Of a stretch of DNA of 64,000 nucleotides, positions 21,007 through 31,559 are shown piece by piece; the stretch's first letter is position 1; every line of letters starts with the position of its first letter. The stretch is taken from contig JADNRY010000004.1 in NCBI GenBank assembly GCA_015501585.1, forward strand, positions 558,001 to 622,000, in the 5' to 3' direction. The notes beneath the pieces are model-generated. The model worked only from the letters and a program-made list of their open reading frames with translations, was not told the origin of the DNA and did not search any database. Source of the DNA: Rhodocollybia butyracea (taxonomy: Eukaryota > Basidiomycota > Agaricomycetes > Agaricales > Omphalotaceae). The translations under genes and the position numbers were made by a program.

Positions 21007-21014
21007 ACCATTAA
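21007..21014. repeat. Target-site duplication, left copy
   Basis: ACCATTAA immediately left of the terminal inverted repeat; the identical 8-mer follows the right end at 31,560-31,567. Confidence 0.9.
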
Positions 21015-21150
21015 CACCTCATACGCCCAGTAAACCAAGGTAATAGCCTATGCCATGGGGGGGGGGATGGCATAGGCTGTTGTGATGAAGATCCGCTATC
21101 GGCCTATAGCGCAATAAAAGCTGGATAATTCCAGTGGACTTTGCAGCCGC
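21015..21150 (+). repeat. Left terminal inverted repeat of the KDZ element
   Basis: Reads CACCTCATACGCCCAGTAA at the outer edge, then the G10 hairpin, then CGCTATCGGCCTATAGCGCA and AAGCTGGATAATTCCAG. It matches the reverse complement of 31,438-31,559 almost throughout. Confidence 0.9.
21045..21078. other. Hairpin with a G10 loop inside the left TIR
   Basis: Perfect 12-bp arms AGCCTATGCCAT (21,045-21,056) and ATGGCATAGGCT (21,067-21,078) flank ten Gs. The mirror structure with ten Cs is in the right TIR at about 31,496-31,529, with one arm mismatch. Confidence 0.85.
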
Positions 21151-21334
21151 AGGGTTCTCGGATATCATTCCTGCCGCTTCGGATATCAGTCCCGCTGCTA
21201 CCGGCACCACTAATGACATGCGTCATCCCGCCTCTCCCGCCCTCTGACCTCCGCCCTCTTATTATTCTTATTATCGAGTAAAAGCTATGTATTTTTGAAG
21301 CTAACGTACGCACGCAATGATATATAAACTTTAC

Positions 21335-24300
21335 TCAGTCAGTCGATATCTGTACTACCGTCATCAGCTCTACGAGGGCGTCATCTTCCTCATCAGGGTC
21401 TTCATCTGGCGGCGGCGCGTCCTCATCGGTGTCGCGATCGTTGGGAGCGGTGGGCTGGGGTCCACCTTCAAAGCCGCATGTATAAACGGATACAGCGCAC
21501 CACGACCGGGAGTAAGGGTTCCTGTAAAGCCGGGCATCTTCTCCAACTTCTTCAGCCTGATGAGGTGCATGTCGTTACAACGCCCACGTTCCCAGCCATG
21601 TTTCTCGATCTGGATGGCCAGAAGGGGATCCGTTTGTTGGACTTCCTCGGCCTTTAGGCGTATATAGATGGTTTCCTCGTGTATATAAGTCACCAGCGAG
21701 CGAATTTCCTTGTTGAGCCGCGCTATCTCTTCAGGAGCTCGCTGGAGCTTGTAGTATTGGTCGAGGGCTAAACGACCAGCTGGCTGCGCCCATAGTTCAC
21801 CGCGTACGTCACGTCGAGCATCGCGGAGGAGGTCAAAGTCGGAAAGAAACGAGTACTCGAGGACTTGGTCCCAGGTCAACTGAGGGCGGTCAAGCTCGGC
21901 TGCTGCATCATTGTACGCGGTGACTGCGGTGCGAATGGCCTGTGATCTTGCTTTCAGCGCGTTTGCAATATGCGTTCGTAGTTTGTACCCTGAGAGTCAT
22001 TAACATAAAGAAGTGGCCGACCAGATCAAAACACATACCAGTACGAGACATGTTGAGCTTTGTGAGCTCAAAAAGTCGAGCAACAACTAAGCCCTCCAAC
22101 TTGTCCAACGCCCTCTGATACTTGGCCATTACCACCATCTTTTTTGCCTTCTCCCATTCCTCCGAGCCTGAGATCCACCGCTCCTTGATACCCAATTGCA
22201 ACTCCAACGTTTGAACTTCACTCTTGAGGTCATCACGGCTTTCGATTGCGTGTCGCCGATGAGTTTCGATCCGACGTGTTTGGTCCAACTTTCCGAAGGC
22301 TTCAGGGGCGTTGTCGGGGGTGTAAGTAACCCATTGACGTGTTGCAGTGGCCAGCTTTAGTCTAGTAAACCCACTTAGAGAAGGCGTATGAGGAAGGCCA
22401 ACAAGTGCACTTACTCCGCGTCTTCCAGCTTGACCAGCCTTTTGTAATACTCCATTTGAACCGACTCCTCTGCTGGCACCTTCTTAAGGCCACTGAGATA
22501 TCTTCGTTCTTCCTCGAGCCATTGATCAAAGGTGTCGGTTGAAGGAATACCCAAGTCGTTCATCGTTTTTACAAGTGCCGGAAGGGTTGCTTGAATTTCT
22601 AGGGCTTGCTTGTAGTTGTCGACGATGAACTTGCTAAGGCGACTATAGGCCTCGAGGTTATCGTGGTGGTAGCAATAGCGTGCAATCGCTTGGCGTCGAT
22701 GGAAGACACTCATGTGTCGGACACTTGATGCTAGCTCATTTGATTCGGAAAAAAACGCCTCGCACTCTTCCAGGTGCTCGATTCCTAGCCCCTTGATGTA
22801 GGTGCAGAGGTAACAGGTCTGGCAAAGCCGCGAATGGGCATGTCCATGGAAAGCGCCGACTAAGGAAGCGAATCGAAGGCGTTTGGCCTTTTCTCCCAGC
22901 GGACTATTGGCGACAGTTGTACCAAAGGCACACCCAATGTCATAGCCTATCCCGATGTCTTCGCCGATGACGTCAAGAAGGCGGTCGAGTATGGAGAGAG
23001 GGTATTTAGCCCTAAGGGAAAGTTAGCCTCAAATAAGATATAGGCGACAAGCACGCACAGCTCACCGCTCATTACCATGTCTGTGATAAGGAGCACAAAG
23101 CTGTGCCGGCAGAGACACAGAAACACCCCAGTTTCCTCGTATACCCCCCACATCTTTGCAGTCAGCTCTTCGCTCAAATTTTTCCAGCGTTCTGCGCAGG
23201 GGTTCGGCTCCGTCTCCTCCGCTTGCCCGCACATCTCCTTAATTGACTCCTTCGACCACCTATCCACCTCCCCCCTACTGAGGTAGTAGTCCCCCCTGCT
23301 TTCCGGGTATCCGTATACTCCTTCGAGGTTCCTGGTAGCGGCGGGTCCACTTCATTGACAGCGTCGACTCGCTCATTCCGTCTTAGTCGCTTCAACGAGT
23401 TGTTACCATCCCAAGTTGCAAGAAGGCGGAATTGAAGCTCGGGCTCACCCTCAACACGATAAAGGCAGCATGGACATGCGTTTGCTAAACGCCAGTCAGG
23501 GGAATCACGGCCCAAGGCAACTTGAACGCGTGTATGGATTTGGCCAAGGACATTCAGATAGAGGTCAAAGGCGATCGAGAACTGGACTTGTAAATAGGGC
23601 TTGAATGGAACGCCTTGTAAATCGCAGAGCGACTTTACAAAGGCTTTGATAGAGAGTCGAGGGCATCGGAGGGACTGAACTCGAAACACCTCAAGAGTTC
23701 GCGTGGTGACCCCTACGGTGGCAATGCCGGGGGAACAAGGGAAGAGGCCATTCCGGACGAGGCTACATGACCAGAACGCATCTTGTTCATTGGAGGTACG
23801 AACCTCGGTATAGAAAGACCCTGCAAGCGAGTTGACATAAGGCCTTGTAGAGGATTTAATATTCAATACTCACGGAAAAGGTCGACCGCGATAACTGTTT
23901 GAGAGTTTATCTCTCCATCAAACTCTCCCGGAACCCTCCGCCTATTCCCTCCTTACCCAGGGCTCCGTACCACACCATATACGCGCCGGTCATCGGCTCA
24001 ATCTGGCTAGCAAAACGCTGGTTTCGGCGTTCGGTTCTATCGCGTCGTGTCCGATATTCCTTATATTTTCTGGACAAAGGGCTTCGTTAGATAGGTTAGA
24101 GGGCACTGGAGAGAAAACCCACCTCTTTCCCGTCTCTGTTTGCCAGTATTCACCTGCAATATCCTCCCATTCCCCTGCGTTGCTGTGATCCATCGTAGTC
24201 CATCCCTCAAGGACTTCTTCAACTCTATCCATATCTTCATCCACATCGTCGCTAAAGCCAGTGCCATCCCATCCCTGCCTTTGCTCCCAGAATTCCTCGT

Positions 24301-24376
24301 TTGGCTTGAGAGCCTCTTGCTTGGATTTGAGATTTGTGATTTGCGTGCGATTGACGGTGTGAATGGTGCTTTTCAT
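21335..24376 (-). CDS. KDZ (Kyakuja-Dileera-Zisupton) transposase
   Basis: About seven exons on the minus strand give a protein of roughly 850-900 residues with the fungal KDZ hallmarks in order: an N-terminal basic/acidic region, QIEPMTGAYMVWYGA, PCSPGIATVGVTTRTLEVFR, FDLYLNVLGQI, ALGRDSPDWRLANACPCCLY (cysteine pair), DGNNSLKRLRR, NPCAERWKN, CRHSFVLLITDMVMSGELAK, GYDIGCAF, FHGHAHSRLCQ, FHRRQAI, MEYYKRLV, LEGLVVARLFELTKLNMSRTGYK, LTWDQVLEYSFLSDFDLLRD and GFTGTLTPG. The frame needs one extra base at C/G runs near 23,935 and 23,293; near 21,470 the acidic C terminus (DEDAPPPDEDPDEEDDALVE) lies in another frame, by indel or intron. The N-terminal start is uncertain; ATG 24,376 is the first in frame. 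It excises and inserts the element through a DDE/RNase-H-like core. Confidence 0.9.
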
Positions 24377-24761
24377 GAGTTCCACGAGATTTGTACTGCC
24401 TCCCCCATACTGCTGAACACGACGAGAGCCAGACGCGCGATGGCTTTTGAGCTTCGAGGATGACTAGGGCATCAAAAAAAGAATTGAAGAGAAGCGCCGA
24501 AAAGCGAACATGTGATCGTCACTGCTTTGACTTCAAACCTGTATTTAAGTCGCCGCTTCTTCTACTCTTCCTACCTTTTCCTGTTTCTTGATATTTCTCC
24601 AGTAAGCTTTTTTCAATTCTCTTGTGCTTTGCTGTATCTAGATCACGTTCACCTTATCGCGTTCACACCTGGATGTGGTAAGGCGACGCGTTCTACAGCA
24701 CTGCGCTTACTGCTGCAAAGGTCGTTGAGCTGCTGACTGATTTTGACTTGCCAGGATATAT

Positions 24762-26299
24762 ATGTCCACAAATTTTTCGCGAAAGGTACTCGCTACATAT
24801 ATACGCGAAGTAGCAACGCTGATTTCGCGTATAGACGCGTTCTGGCCGGACGTTCTTGGAGATCCTTACAGAAGATAGCCCTGACGATATGGCCATCCTC
24901 CAGCTTGACTTTGCCGTGGACATGGACGAGCTCGCAAAGCAGGCGATCGATACATGCGATACCGAGGAGCTTCACAAACCTAAGTCGACCCCGCCTCTAT
25001 ATCTGCACAGCAGCCTCAAGCACAGACGGGATTCCGAAGCTGATCACGCCGTCGAACCACCCCTCAAGCGTCCTTGCACAACTGCTGGCACGGAAGCACC
25101 CAAGACCCAGTCCTCCAAGAACCGGCGTCGCAGAACCCGCCGTACAGAAAAGCGGGAAGCGAATGGCCACCCCCGTGGATCCGGCCATGCCTTTGAGAGA
25201 TATGTGCTCACTACGACCCCGCTTCAGTCAGAGCTTGAAAGCAAGGCACTTCCGATAGCTGAAGGGGGCTGGATTGCCACCAACGCCAGCTATTATGGGG
25301 CAAAAGTCAAGCGGAACCTCGAGGATATGAAGGCAAAGGGGTTTACCCATATTCCATGGAAAGGAAAGTAAGTCATCTCATCTATTTGAAACAAGCCGTC
25401 TCCCACCTTATTGTATAGAGTTCCGGTATGCGTGGTCGATAATCAAGACCGCGTCGTGCTTGTAGCCGCCGGACAGCCTAACGATCCCTCCTACGCCATG
25501 GATGCAGGATGTATGGCCGAGTTGATGCTGAAGATGGGGGAGAGCACGGATTGGGAAAAGGAGGAAAAGCACCACGGCCGTGGCGACTACTCCTGTGCAA
25601 ACTATGGCTGGTCCTATGGTAAGGGCCAGCAGCAACCTCAGCGTCTCGGGGCCAAAGGCAAGAGATGATGGCCAGGTTTGTTAACGAGCCGTGCACGCAG
25701 CGCGTTGCTGCCTTTCAAAGCGGTAAGCCGCATCCCCTTCCATCTACAGGCCTATATTGACACCCTTGTTCACAGCTTCGTTTGCCCTTTGGTTTCCCAA
25801 AAGCTACGCTGAGTTTCGCCGACGAAACTCGCAGCTTAAGGAGAAGATACCCGCCTTTGAGGGCAACGTCAAGGGCAGCGTTTATTCGTGCTGCACTGCC
25901 AACTGCGGGCCCAACTCCTGGACGCATATCCACCGGGATGGCCTGAACTGTGCAGGCGCTTGCTGCACCGTTACTTCTGCGAAGGGCGGCCAGCTTATCA
26001 TCTGGGACCTGAAGCTCATCTTCGACTTCCCACCGGGTTCGACCATCCTTCTTCCCTCTGCGCTCTTCCGGCATTCGAACATACCAATTCAAAAGGGTGA
26101 AAAGCGCGTTTCCTTCACCCAGTACACCGCTGGAGGCATTCATCGTTGGCTTGAGTATGGAGGTAGGACCGAAGAGCAGTATGCAATCCAAGACCCTGTG
26201 GGCTTTGAACAGATGTTGAAGGAAAGGCCTGAGCGTTGGCGTAGGGTTTTGGAGATGTTCAGTACCATTGACGAGCTTCGAGCTGGCATCATTGAGTAA
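24762..26299 (+). CDS. TET/JBP-family 2-oxoglutarate/Fe(II) dioxygenase carried by the KDZ element
   Basis: Proposed exons: 24,762-24,785, 24,835-25,367, 25,419 to about 25,722, and 25,776-26,299. A later start at ATG 24,889 is the alternative. The N-terminal third is basic and likely nuclear (RRRRTRRTEKR). The conserved part runs from GFTHIPWKGKVPVCVVDN through AAGQPNDPSYA, GDYSCANYGWSYGKGQ and FALWFPKSYAE to the catalytic core: WTHIHRD (HxD iron ligands), GGQLIIWDLKLIFDFPPGST, LFRHSN (distal His), KRVSFTQYTAGG (Arg for 2-oxoglutarate) and HRWLEYG. All catalytic residues are present. The frame breaks once at a GGGG run near 25,650, so either one G is missing from the consensus, a 44-nt intron is used, or the copy is dead. 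By family it oxidises 5-methylcytosine in DNA, which could undo silencing of the element. Confidence 0.88.
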
Positions 26300-27218
26300 T
26301 TAGATAGCAAAATACAGCTTGTTTTATTCCCCTACTTAGTGATCCTGAGAAAGCTTCGTCCAAAGCTAAGAAAGAACTCGAGCAAGTCTGTTTGAGACCG
26401 TTTACGTTCAATGAGAACAATTTAGAGAGATTTAGCATTTCTATCTCAGATCTGAACTATGCTTAGAGTATTGGATTGAAATTCTTTGGACAAGGTGTAA
26501 GTAATGTACGTCAATGAAGATCCATGACCCGTTGTGCAATCTTGCCCATTTCACGAACTCATATCAGTTCAAAAAAAAAGCCTAATGAAAAATTAATTCT
26601 CAGTTATACAACTCTACATGCAGATCAGGCTACGCCTAACACATTCACTCAGATTCAAGATCTCATCTTGCTAGAGCACGAACAAAGTGGAAATCTCAAT
26701 ACTTTTACCTGTTATTTTCAAGGCATCTTCACTCAAGTCGGTTTGATATTTTTTTTTCGAGTCTTTCAATAGTATCGCAACATTTACAGTATGCGAGAAC
26801 CACTTACTTACTAAATCTTGGTCCCCTAGGATTTTTTGTAGGAATCACAGCATTCTGCTGTTTTGCAATGCCATAATTAATCGTTTTGCTTGGAAAAAAA
26901 TCTCAGAAATATCTCTTATATCTAGTCTCACTATTACCACAATTTAAGACGAATTCAAATACAAAGTGCTACAAAAATTCGCAAAGATAGGATTAGTGAT
27001 GTAACAAGCAACACATTTTGGATGAGCGCCTGAGCGTCTAGTTCTCAAAATAGGCAATTGTAATCAGAACGAGACCAAAATCTCATCGTTTATACAACTT
27101 AGATACAATACAACAGTGCACTCGTGCCATTTCTTCTAGTTTCAAAACGAAAAGTCCGTGTATACATTTAACTAGCATATCGTACATAGACAAAATAAAA
27201 TAAAATCACAAGCATACA
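26300..27218. other. AT-rich spacer inside the KDZ element, no gene seen
   Basis: About 0.9 kb, markedly AT-rich relative to its neighbours, lying between the 3' ends of the dioxygenase gene and the viroplasmin-domain gene. The only frame of note (26,524-26,772) has no domain. Confidence 0.55.
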
Positions 27219-28584
27219 TTAAGGGAAAAATTCGGGGCTGGGTGTCTGTATGATACGAGAGGGGTTCGATGTAGCTTTAATTACCCAGTCCTCTGCAGCA
27301 TCTGCTTCCTGACGCCACCCCTTCAAGCATCCACCACCCCACTCCAAGCCGTATTTGACAGCCTCATGACTGTTAATAGGTCATCAGGAGCGAAAAGAGG
27401 TGTTCAAAAGCTAGGGACTCACAGGGAGTTGTAGATCGCGGGTTTAACGCCCTCAGTGACGCTCCAATATGGGCGGCCAGCACCATGCTGTATCGCGGCA
27501 ATGACCCCAGAACTACTTGCGGCGAGCCAAGCTTCTTGGGCTGCCTCCAGGGTGTAGAACCCTTTGAAGACCAGCGTCTGGTCGTTCCGAAGAATCCGTT
27601 TGACTGCTGACCTGAATAGTTGCCATCTGTTAGATAGCTAACAAAAAAATAAGACAGCGACGCAAAACTTACCAGTCGGCATAGAAATACGGAGTACGTC
27701 CTGAGTATACAACGTACGCATTGAACGAGCCCTCTCTGCCTCGAACAGCAGGAGCAGGTGACGGCGGTGGTCCAGATGGAGCTGAACTTGCGCGACTTTG
27801 TGTCGACGGTGCACGACTCGGCATACGGCTTGAGGTACGGCTGGGTGTGTGACTCGGTGTCCATGGATGGGTGGAGGTTGTCGAGGGCGCAAGCTTCCGA
27901 GGGGGCATTCCTGGGAACATATTGGGCGCCGTTGAGTACTCAGGAAGTCTGGGCGCAGACATAGAAGGTGCCGGCGAAGAATATTTTGGAGGGGTTGGCG
28001 TGGCCTTGGAGGAGGGGGTGTGGGTCTCATACCAATGCGTTGACGAGTTGGGCCTGGTTATGGCAATCAGGAAATTGGTAAGTTATAGCAGTAAAAAAAA
28101 AAGCATACCACTGTTCATTGGAATGTTGCTTGCCTTTCTGAAGGCGGCGACTTGAATTTTTGGGTTTTGGTTCAACTAGCGTTCATTCAAGGATACAAAC
28201 GGAACCTAGAAACGGTATGAGGCTTACCTGATAAGTGCTCCAGCTGCTTGGCAAGTTGCCCTATTGAATATAGATATCAAGTACTTGTATCGAGGAAAAC
28301 GGGGGTCACTTACCTTCTTCGTCTTCATCCTCATCGCTCTCGATCCAAATGGCTTTGCCGGATCCAGCAAGTTGGGGCTTTATCGGGGCCTCACTGGCCG
28401 TTGCATCCCCTTTGAGCTCTATAAATTTTTACAAGTATTAGCCCATATCTTCAGAGCATTTGGTTTTAACATACCTCCATGTGTACTTTTCGAGGGGCTA
28501 ACCCGCGGCGTTTGAATTCCTAGGTAAGTTGTCAGCTGAGAATGTTATAATTACATATTTCAGTAATGTAAACTCACCAGTCAT
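27219..28584 (-). CDS. Viroplasmin / RNase H1 N-terminal-type domain protein in the KDZ element (325 aa)
   Basis: Eight exons (28,578-28,584; 28,475-28,519; 28,314-28,418; 28,228-28,260; 28,109-28,175; 27,673-28,053; 27,423-27,611; 27,219-27,369) join without any frame break to 325 residues. The first exon is only 7 nt. The N-terminal 200 residues are Pro/Ser/Thr-rich and low complexity. Residues about 202-252 match the small viroplasmin/RNase H1-N fold: FNAYVVYSGRTPYFYADW, then KRILRNDQTLVFKGFYTLEE-like sequence with AQEAWLA. A weaker second copy (GRPYWSVTEGVKPAIYNSLHEAV ... AEDWVI) may follow. This domain binds RNA-DNA hybrids or dsRNA in RNase H1 and is common in fungal mobile-element proteins. 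No RNase H catalytic domain is present. A role in target or transcript binding is inferred. Confidence 0.75.
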
Positions 28585-28931
28585 AGCAGGAGAATAGAAC
28601 AAGATGATTACTGAGTAAGAGGATGGAGGGAGGGAAGAAAGAATCGATATCATCTCATCAGAGACTTGTTGAGTTGTTAATGTACGGCAATTCGGACCGC
28701 CCAGAAATCACTGCGAAATCACGCGGTCAGGGTGCATCATTGCATCAACTACTCCGACCATCGATAAACCACTCATGGCTGCGATAGTCGGGCTTGACGC
28801 GAAAAACGTGACACATGGAAGGCGCGTATACGCGTTGTTTTGTGATGCTTGTTGAGGGTGGTGGGCAGAAAATCTTTCAGCCCTGACTTTGACTCTGACT
28901 CTTATTTTCAGCAACGTCTCTTCTCCATACT

Positions 28932-31095
28932 ATGAATAACTTGCCCTTCGACGTGAATAACAGCTTCCAATTTCCTGGGGGTGTCAATGTCTCCCTTGGC
29001 CAAGGCCTCGAATTCAATCCTCAAAACGATATCGGCGACAACTTCGACAACATTGACGATTTCGACTTTCCTATTGATTTCAATGATCCTATGCTCGTAG
29101 ATGCTTTTGACTTCATGGACACGGGCCTCAATCCTGGTGCTAACGCAACTATGTTTCCTAGTAAGTTTAGTATTTTTTCAAAACTTGCAGGTTCTAATAA
29201 ACTTTCCACTAGATGGCACCAACGATACATCCCTGTTTCTTCCCGACTCAGATACAGATGGATCCCATTTGACTCCTGCTTCCGAGGGCGCATCTTCCGA
29301 CTCTACAGACCCCACATGTAAATCGTATTCCTTGAAGGACTTTCAACTAAATTTCTGACAATTTTGTGCTAGATGATGACGGCGAAGCCCCGTCACTTTT
29401 CCTTCCCAGTACCAACAGTTCCCATTCAATCCCGGCCTCTGGAGATGCATCTGCTGCGGATAGTGAAGGTCCTTCCAATTCCATCGGCGAGTCACACGGC
29501 AAGGATGGCTCAGCTTATCTCGCCGTTCCGATAACAAAGCCAACCTTTCTCTCTTTTGAGCCTACTACACATGCTCAACGTAACCCCCTGCTCCCAACTC
29601 AGTCTGTTCGTGCCCGACCCAAACGAAAACTGGACCCGGTGCAAGCTCGCACAATGAACGAGGCAAAGGCAGAAAAACAGAGGTTAGCGATGCTGGCTCG
29701 GGATGATATTCTGAAGCTCGCAATGGAGTTTGAGGAAAATATCAAAGGTTTGGCCGAGAAACATTCTGTTACCGTGGAGTACCTCAAAGGTCTGATGTCA
29801 ATGGCCTCGAAGTACAAGCGTAAGAGAGCTGCAGGACGGATGCAAGCTCTCATCCATCTCAAAGGTAAAGAGATCAACTCAAGTAAGTATCCCCATCTTC
29901 CACTCTTCTCATTGGAGCTAATTTCGTTGTAGCTCTTCCTACTGGTAGTAAGCTCAAGGCCCCTGCTCTTCGCAAGCTGGTCGAAGAGGATGAAGAGTTG
30001 CGCACGCTCTCAGGCGAGAAAGTCGAAGAGGCAAAGCGAGAAGTTGATGCACAGAGGCTACTTTCGACGCGGGGTATACGACCGACCAATCTATCTGCTG
30101 CAAAGGACTATTCAGCCTTCTCTCGCAGGTAAAAAAAGGTACGTTGTTAATTTTGTAGGTCTCAAATGTGATACTCATGGTTTCCTCAGTTTGACTCCCT
30201 CCATGTTCGAACAGGCGCCGTGGGCTTCGGATTCCTCTGTCCCGGGACCTCCGATGATAAAGGTTTCCCTGCCTGGTTTGTTGCTGGGAACAAAACTTCG
30301 GACTTTGTTCGACATCACCTCAATACGACAATGTGGGATCTTCTGTTAGAGCTGGAACTTTGGACGTCAAAGAAAGGTAAGTTCATCATATTAGCGTATA
30401 CAACTCAGCCTGACGCTTCGTGTACAGAGAAGCCTGCAACCATCGTTGAAATTCAATCCCAATGCTCTGTTATGATTGCCTCCTCCCTCCGTAAGTGTTT
30501 ACTTGACTTTGCATCGTCTAATGCTAATATATTTTCAAGGTTACATCCTCAAAGATAAATCTATGAACATGAACTACGCAAGCTACCACACCAACATCGT
30601 CGCTAAGCACCACGTACAGCTCATTGGCCTCCCCGACTCGAAGATATTTATCGACGCCAACGGGCCCATCAAACCTTTCGACATCAAAGAACGCAAAGCC
30701 CTAGAAGCTCTCCATGCCGGCTTGAGTCTGGGGCTTGTCGTTGGTCGAAGATGTCTGCAGAGGAGGTCAAGGAGCACAAAGCATGGCTTCAAATGCAGGC
30801 GCCCAAAGAGCGGCAGTCCAAGTGAAAAGGAACAAAGCGTGGACGCCGCAAACAAATAGCAAACGCCGGCGACGACAACGGTGAAAACCAGGCCCCGCCG
30901 CCCAAGCGTCAGCGAATCAGTAGTCAGAAATCGAAAGCACAGACCGCCGGAAGCAGAGGAGGGCAATCGACAGCAGCGCAGAAGGCTCGTATCAGAAAGA
31001 AGCTCCCTCCTAAACCCTCCAGCGCTGAATTCATAGATACCGACGAAGATACGGATGGCAGCGGCAGCGATGGGGACGAGGGAAACAGCGCTTGA
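28932..31095 (+). CDS. Unknown multi-exon cargo protein of the KDZ element (Agaricomycete-type family; frame interrupted)
   Basis: Exons begin at 28,932, 29,213, 29,373 and 29,933, with further exons to a stop at 31,095. The N terminus is acidic and Asn/Asp/Phe-rich (NDIGDNFDNIDDFDFPIDF). The middle is a charged coiled-coil region (ARTMNEAKAEKQRLAMLARD). Then comes a conserved globular part: FDSLHVRTGAVGFGFLCPG, MWDLLLELELW, MNMNYASYHTNIVAKHHVQL, IDANGPIKPFDIKERKALEA, and a GACRWSKMSAEEVKEHKAWL segment. The tail is basic then acidic (TDEDTDGSGSDGDEG). Frame problems: exon 4 to 5 phase fits only with one more G before GTAAAA (about 30,130); one base is missing near 30,722; a TGA lies at about 30,823. 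Similar proteins occur in many copies in mushroom genomes by my recollection. No function is known; a partner of transposition is possible. Confidence 0.6.
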
Positions 31096-31165
31096 ACAGA
31101 CCGGCGTTTTCTTTACATGTATACTGACTTCAATAACAAGTACAACATTACTATGACCGCTATAA

Positions 31166-31207
31166 CTTTATGCTATTATCTCTATTCTTTATGCTATTAT
31201 CTCTATT
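31166..31207. repeat. Tandem duplication of 21 bp
   Basis: CTTTATGCTATTATCTCTATT occurs twice head to tail (31,166-31,186 and 31,187-31,207), just after the last cargo gene and inside the element. It is exact, so it is young. Confidence 0.9.
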
Positions 31208-31437
31208 TCAACTTACATGCGTTTACACTAACGGATTACAACAAGTAAAGGAACAGCAGAGAGCTAAGTACAAGAGCAACGATGGTGGGAGCAGCAAGCA
31301 GGAGGCGGAGGCGGGAGTAATGATGTCAAGGGCGGAGTGCGCACGGTCTAGGCGCCCCGGAAGGAAGAGCCGAGAATGGTAGCGTAGTGCCGGTAGTAGC
31401 GGAAATGATATCCGAGAATGATAGCAGGCTCCAAGTC

Positions 31438-31559
31438 CGCTGGAATTATCCAGCTTTTATTGCGCTATAGGCCGATAGCGGATCTCCATCATAACAGCCT
31501 ATGCCATCCCCCCCCCCATGGCAAAGGCTATTATCTTTACTTACTGGGCGTATGAGGTG
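31438..31559 (-). repeat. Right terminal inverted repeat of the KDZ element
   Basis: Reverse complement of the left end: CTGGAATTATCCAGCTTTTA at its inner side and TTACTGGGCGTATGAGGTG at the outer edge (31,541-31,559), followed by the duplicated ACCATTAA at 31,560-31,567. Confidence 0.9.

What the first reader, a model, noticed from the sequence alone, without database searches (positions are those of the whole stretch)
21015..31559. Complete 10.5-kb KDZ transposon with a TET/JBP dioxygenase and two more cargo genes
Seen: matching inverted ends (CACCTCATACGCCCAGTAA), a perfect 8-bp target duplication (ACCATTAA), a KDZ transposase, and a dioxygenase with all iron and 2-oxoglutarate ligands, plus two further genes. 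Established: TET/JBP genes in mushrooms are linked to KDZ transposases. Inference: here all four genes are one mobile unit with exact borders, so the dioxygenase could demethylate the element itself. The viroplasmin-domain gene and the unknown gene as fixed partners may be new.
Basis: partly seen in the sequence, partly recalled or inferred. Interest (0 to 1): 0.9.

Follow-up and report, generated by a model that had tools for sequence, protein, structure and literature searches.

The report
Four-gene mushroom transposon carrying TET dioxygenase
A 10.5-kb jumping gene in the mushroom Rhodocollybia butyracea carries four genes as one unit: its transposase, a TET-type DNA dioxygenase and two little-known partner genes; all four look kept by selection in related copies, although this particular copy looks broken.

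Summary
The borders are real. The element fills window 21015-31559, with 127-bp inverted ends (94%) and a perfect 8-bp duplication. Contig C42 of the same assembly carries the empty site with a single ACCATTAA. Three further four-gene copies (C905, C1090, C676) have perfect 8-bp duplications of their own. Seven loci carry all four genes in one order and orientation; all 10 viroplasmin-gene loci found lie beside this TET. All four genes show purifying selection between copies (dN/dS 0.14-0.24 in the one unsaturated pair). The host is R. butyracea; both extra genes have relatives in Lentinula, the fourth also in Gymnopus.

New as far as I could search: the conserved four-gene cassette; a TET clade without the published AG or PE marks; and a strong CpG-to-TpG bias in the youngest copies (25 of 28 differences, against 12 of 51 in host flanks), which suggests that the element is methylated. 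Demethylation by its own dioxygenase is plausible but untested. My reading: transposase, 5mC eraser and two helper proteins forming an anti-silencing kit.

The parts
21007..21014 (.). left copy of the 8-bp target site duplication ACCATTAA
   Evidence: sequence; single copy at the empty site on C42
31560..31567 (.). right copy of the target site duplication ACCATTAA
   Evidence: sequence
21015..21141 (+). left terminal inverted repeat, begins CACCTCATACGCCCAGTAA
   Evidence: aligned with ends of other copies
31433..31559 (-). right terminal inverted repeat
21045..21078 (.). palindrome around a run of 10 G inside the left inverted repeat; a G run of 5 or more stands at this place in all 15 ends aligned, but the palindrome around it is clear only in the window's ends
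   Evidence: alignment, read by eye
21335..24463 (-). KDZ transposase gene, several exons; frame-broken in this copy
   Evidence: PF18758 E 2e-42; tblastn against related copies; outer limits read by eye
24762..26299 (+). TET/JBP-type dioxygenase gene, 4 exons in the model of the C74 copy; a frame break near 25,660 in this copy
   Evidence: start read by eye; fold of the L. edodes relative P0032
25931..25939 (+). HxD iron ligands of the dioxygenase; distal His at 26072-26074, 2-oxoglutarate Arg at 26105-26107
   Evidence: conserved columns
27219..28584 (-). viroplasmin (RNase H1 N-terminal domain, PF01693) gene, public model BDP27DRAFT_1413727, 325 aa
   Evidence: limits read by eye
28932..31095 (+). 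fourth gene, unknown family, public model BDP27DRAFT_1413728; frame-broken in this copy
   Evidence: limits read by eye

Best explanation
The window holds a whole insertion of a KDZ DNA transposon whose autonomous form is a four-gene unit: KDZ transposase, TET dioxygenase, a viroplasmin (RNA:DNA-hybrid-binding type) protein and a nuclear-looking fourth protein. The transposase would cut and paste DNA between the inverted ends with 8-bp duplications (borders shown; enzyme inferred from family). Element copies are methylated at CpG by the host (inferred from the mutation bias), which silences them and turns CGA codons into stops. The element's own TET oxidises 5mC on it, and the two partner proteins help it to stay transcribed or to transpose (inferred). 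This window copy is a polymorphic, coding-damaged member, probably movable only with proteins made elsewhere (inferred).
Against: In a heuristic scan none of seven copies has all four frames clean, so present activity is not shown. The 5mC activity of this TET clade is untested, and the window exon alone scores below Pfam's cut-off. The CpG scars mean that methylation wins at least part of the time. In the older pair C1090/C650 the CpG share is lower (167 of 388 differences). The roles of the viroplasmin and fourth proteins rest on a domain name and on sequence features; the fourth protein's model is too poor to use. dS is saturated in most comparisons between families, and the viroplasmin gene of the window gave only 71-90 codons, with ratio limits up to 0.53.
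Confidence: 0.7

Rival explanations
1. The viroplasmin and fourth genes are core transposition proteins (a second DNA-binding subunit and an accessory factor, as in two-protein transposons such as Harbinger), not anti-silencing factors; only the TET is anti-silencing.
For: All four genes share order and purifying selection. The fourth protein has a long helix-turn-helix stretch (model helices 160-201 and 206-242, ten-residue mean pLDDT 57-83 from residue 161 on) and basic and acidic C-terminal tracts.
Against: Nothing yet separates this from the main reading; the model as a whole is poor (mean pLDDT 49).
Confidence: 0.4
2. The TET marks rather than erases: it leaves oxidised methylcytosine as a lasting, non-targeted mark over transposons, changing chromatin instead of restoring cytosine.
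For: Kojima 2025 (text read) cites surveys in Coprinopsis and Laccaria where oxidised methylcytosine covers several transposon kinds. The CpG scars here show that methylation persists.
Against: No oxidised-base data for this host.
Confidence: 0.25
3. The dioxygenase, viroplasmin and fourth genes are host genes picked up by chance by this transposon.
For: Transposons do capture genes; a viroplasmin gene was reported inside a Pleurotus Helitron copy (PMC4289320, passages read).
Against: The viroplasmin-gene search found no locus without this TET (10 of 10); the only PF01693 profile hits elsewhere are C324 and C517. The order is kept among copies whose viroplasmin proteins are 49-63% alike to the window's and probably in C902/C620. 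All four genes are under purifying selection.
Confidence: 0.04
4. The CpG-to-TpG bias is a general property of this genome, not of methylated transposons.
For: CpG hypermutation can be genome-wide; the host comparison rests on only 51 differences in 4.8 kb near the insertion, plus 2 (none CpG) in a flank shared by C74 and C837.
Against: The host flank share is 12 of 51 against 25 of 28 and 69 of 88.
Confidence: 0.1

Closest known systems
TET+ Kyakuja transposons of Agaricomycotina (Kojima 2025, PMC12730594; main text parts 1-5 of 7 and figure legends read)
   Same: KDZ transposase plus TET/JBP dioxygenase in one bordered DNA transposon of a mushroom; escape from silencing already proposed
   Different: Described with 7-bp duplications and no inverted repeats, and a TET close to CcTet with Gly/Ser and Asp just after HxD. 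Here: 8-bp duplications, 127-bp inverted repeats, invariant Asn and Cys counted at these positions, and two further conserved genes that the text read does not mention. That paper does report further genes in other, rust TET+ transposons (an alpha-kinase in IS3EU, an unnamed third protein in PHISTA)
TET+ Zisupton / Dileera transposons (same paper)
   Same: KDZ, 8-bp duplications, TET gene
   Different: Reported in Auriculariales and Agaricus (Zisupton) and in rusts (Dileera). The A. bisporus transposon TETs are described as PE type with HxE, which this one lacks. I had no reference transposases with which to place this one among K, D and Z
CcTet of Coprinopsis cinerea (PDB 7w5p, 8jkk, 7vpn)
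   Different: 12% identity there; not found by a 21-sequence profile at E 1; differs at the two residues named for 6mA use, as far as counting from HxD tells
KDZ elements of Marasmius oreades (PMC8290104; passages read)
   Same: KDZ elements of a related mushroom with inverted-repeat motifs characterised
   Different: Motifs stand in a supplementary figure that I could not open, so the ends were not compared; no TET or partner genes in the passages read
capE viroplasmin and capF RNase-H-fold genes between inverted repeats inside a Pleurotus ostreatus Helitron copy (Castanera 2014, PMC4289320; passages read)
   Same: A viroplasmin gene beside a putative transposase with inverted repeats in a mushroom
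   Different: Explained there as Helitron capture; no TET named in the passages read. It may be a nested relative of the present kind, which I could not test

Membership tests
KDZ transposons | KDZ transposase domain (PF18758) | tested here: met
   E 2e-42 window exon; E 1.2e-72 for a stretch of the C905 copy
KDZ transposons | terminal inverted repeats and 8-bp duplications (as for Zisupton/Dileera) | tested here: met
   window, C905, C1090, C676; no matching duplication in C74 and C837
Kyakuja as described by Kojima 2025 | 7-bp duplications, CA..TG ends, no inverted repeats | tested here: not met
   8-bp duplications and 127-bp inverted repeats; ends are CA..TG
Kyakuja, Dileera or Zisupton clade | place in the transposase tree | not tested
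   no reference transposases at hand
TET/JBP dioxygenases | Tet_JBP profile | tested here: met
   10 of 21 relatives match at E 0.01, best 4e-6; not the C74 copy; window exon only E 0.016
TET/JBP dioxygenases | HxD...H...R ligands and TET fold | tested here: met
AG-type TET (Kojima 2025) | close to CcTet; Gly/Ser at +5 and Asp at +11 from the HxD His | tested here: not met
   Asn at +5 and Cys at +11 are invariant columns among 29 relatives; position counted from HxD, not from a direct alignment with CcTet; no sequence hit to CcTet
PE-type TET (Kojima 2025) | HxE in place of HxD | tested here: not met
   Asp is an invariant column among 21 and 29 relatives
PU-type TET (Kojima 2025) | conserved residues of the rust type | not tested
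   no reference sequences at hand
RNase H1 N-terminal (viroplasmin) domain proteins | PF01693 over cut-off | tested here: met
   29.1 bits against cut-off 21 for the C74 copy; 38.2 and 25.5 bits in Lentinula; window exon alone 17.1 bits, below cut-off
TET enzymes | oxidation of 5mC in DNA | not testable with these tools
   needs enzyme assay

The most novel reading that the evidence does not exclude
The element is a transposon with a full, co-inherited anti-silencing kit: a 5mC eraser of a fungal TET type not covered by the published AG and PE marks (conventional-TET-like Asn after HxD, so predicted to act on 5mC and not 6mA), a protein that binds RNA:DNA hybrids or nascent transcripts at the element and so confines the eraser to its own transcribed DNA, and a DNA-binding activator with an acidic-aromatic N-terminus. 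The four-gene order is old: it is kept in copies whose viroplasmin proteins are 49-63% alike and probably in the far more diverged C902/C620 lineage.
Probability: 0.2. Interest if true: 0.85.

Novelty: new variant of a known kind. Interest (0 to 1): 0.6.

Why it matters
Whether transposon-borne TET genes free their own element from methylation is not settled by experiment (Kojima 2025 says the function is not experimentally validated). Here is a bordered element with its empty site, several related full copies, selection on all four genes and a mutation record that suggests CpG methylation, so the question can be tested by methylation sequencing of known loci. It also suggests that a group of 'ribonuclease H1 N-terminal domain' proteins in Omphalotaceae are transposon genes.

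Tried and rejected
Fold of the fourth protein: AlphaFold2 on 12 homologues gave mean pLDDT 49, pTM 0.21; no fold search was made with it. No useful Pfam or PDB sequence match for the fourth protein. Acidic activation-domain idea: the highest-scoring 30-residue windows of many fourth-protein homologues are N-terminal acidic-aromatic tracts, but shuffles of the first 140 residues reach the score 5, 655, 0, 6 and 97 times of 1000 in five homologues, so this is only a hint. Sequence search for CcTet with the TET protein and profile failed. The PF01693 search of the whole genome did not ring for the element's own gene, which is split by introns. Viroplasmin-like gene in C902/C620: hhalign E 0.07 and 5.9e-4 with low probabilities, tblastn E 2e-5, no Pfam hit: probable, not proven. 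C1338, first seen as a 13-kb pair of ends, has none of the four genes in the stretch read and no matching duplication. C1268, read in part, gave no partner genes. Lentinula genomes are not held, so cross-genus order rests on locus tags and contig lengths only. Iyer 2014 (the founding KDZ/TET paper) is not held and is known here only through other papers' text. Searches behind 'not found in print': in an open-licence library only; supplementary tables could not be opened.

Full report
What is there. The element runs from 21015 to 31559 (10,545 bp). Its ends are inverted repeats of 127 nt, 94% complementary, flanked by ACCATTAA on both sides. The insertion is therefore polymorphic between two haplotypes or copies, and the borders are exact.

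Host. Public protein records that match the window's genes carry the contig length of the window's contig (1,040,385) and the names BDP27DRAFT_1413727 and 1413728 of Rhodocollybia butyracea.

Related copies. A search with the left end gave 120 candidates, of which 40 were scored. I read both ends of six four-gene copies. Perfect 8-bp duplications: the window, C905 (CGTTAGCG), C1090 (GTACTGAC) and C676 (GATCTATC). No matching duplication: C74 and C837, which share one flank. Of C650 only the right end was found in the stretch read. C905, C74 and C837 are 10.76-10.78 kb; C74 and C837 are 99.7% and 98.9% identical to C905. Against the window copy, aligned DNA blocks of the three are about 70-82% identical, the longest about 72%. 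The seven loci with all four genes have them in the same order and orientation.

Partners. In this genome the viroplasmin-gene query hits 10 contigs. All 10 carry the TET beside it; 8 of 10 carry the fourth gene (not C307 and C1115); 8 of 10 carry the transposase (not C307 and C523); 7 of 10 carry all four. Such searches reach close relatives only. The PF01693 hits over cut-off in a separate profile search are C324 and C517, which look like two alleles of one host gene (not followed up). A more diverged lineage (C902, C620) has transposase, TET, a probable viroplasmin-like gene and a fourth-gene homologue (hhalign E 2e-7 and 3e-15 for C902) in the same arrangement.

Selection. Codon comparison between copies gives dN/dS well below 1 for every gene where dS could be estimated. 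In the one pair with unsaturated synonymous change (C676/C1090) the values are 0.15 (transposase), 0.14 (TET), 0.24 (viroplasmin gene, limits 0.13-0.42) and 0.16 (fourth gene). Mere passengers would not be expected to show this. For the viroplasmin gene three of six comparisons had dS beyond estimation, and the window copy gave only 71-90 codons.

State of this copy. As assembled, the window's transposase, dioxygenase and fourth gene are frame-broken; the public viroplasmin model (325 aa) is whole. In the heuristic scan none of seven copies had all four frames clean. One of the window's breaks is not among the differences from the C1115 copy; others may be assembly errors, since one-base gaps are frequent between the window flank and C42, mostly with a base more in C42.

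Methylation record. Among the three young copies, derived changes are CpG transitions in 11 of 15 (C905), 13 of 13 (C74) and 51 of 73 (C837); in the older copies C1090 and C650 they are 39 of 92 and 113 of 283, but the rate per CpG site (4.5% and 11.8%) is still far above that of transitions at other C/G sites (0.3% and 1.3%). Unpolarised, 25 of 28 (C905/C74), 69 of 88 (C905/C837), 68 of 86 (C74/C837) and 167 of 388 (C1090/C650) differences are CpG transitions, against 12 of 51 in the host flanks compared with C42 and 0 of 2 in a flank shared by C74 and C837. There is no TCG preference of the rust kind. All 4 premature stops that I looked at are TGA where a sister copy has CGA; other stops listed were not looked at. 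I infer CpG methylation of the element. Pooled over the three young copies, 39 of 75 events lie at 8-10 kb of the element and none in the first kb, unexplained.

Non-autonomous relatives. Seven 2.0-2.1-kb elements share the ends and match one another; the one compared with itself (C1151) consists mostly of two 0.9-kb inverted arms. None gave a match to the four genes, and 6 of 7 have perfect 8-bp duplications (two of these, C811 and C499, share one duplication and are probably alleles). These are what a shared transposase would move.

Mechanism. Shown: unit borders, insertion with 8-bp duplication, co-occurrence and selection of four genes, CpG-biased decay. Inferred from families: cut-and-paste by the KDZ transposase, 5mC oxidation by the TET. 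Guessed: hybrid or transcript binding by the viroplasmin protein (the domain's hybrid binding is recalled, from no call), DNA binding or activation by the fourth protein.

Against what is known. Kojima 2025 (main text parts 1-5 of 7 and legends read) already reports complete TET+ KDZ transposons and proposes escape from silencing; that part is not new. It also reports extra genes in some rust TET+ transposons. The text read names no viroplasmin or fourth gene; its supplementary table was not open to me. A 2014 paper (passages read) reports a viroplasmin gene beside a putative RNase-H-fold transposase between inverted repeats in Pleurotus; that may be a relative seen in another light. I file this as a new variant of a known kind.

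Noticed in passing
L018-L022, L025, L026 (C1151, C811, C1316, C547, C499, C713, C716 at about 424-426 kb): 2-kb elements with the same ends, C1151 with 0.9-kb inverted arms, no match to the four genes; 6 of 7 with perfect 8-bp duplications.
   Followed up: partly
L037+L038 (C902) and L039 (C620): Far diverged KDZ-TET elements with the same gene arrangement; C902 also holds a 1.35-kb near-perfect inverted repeat (99.6%) between transposase and TET.
   Followed up: partly
C905/C74/C837 copies, 8-10 kb of the element: 39 of 75 pooled CpG-to-TpG events fall in two 1-kb bins, none in the first.
   Followed up: no
window 21015-21141 and 31433-31559: A palindrome around a run of 10 G in the window's ends; a G run of 5 or more at this place in all 15 ends aligned, the palindrome weak or absent in the other copies (by eye).
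   Followed up: no
whole genome G000: 103 TET-like exon matches and 144 KDZ matches; by eye, uncounted, many TET loci have no KDZ match nearby.
   Followed up: no
L009 (C42): The empty-site contig differs from the window flank by many one-base gaps, mostly a base more in C42, as from unpolished long reads.
   Followed up: partly
C324:8550 and C517:325309: The only PF01693 hits over cut-off in the profile search, probably alleles of the host RNase H1 (identity guessed).
   Followed up: no
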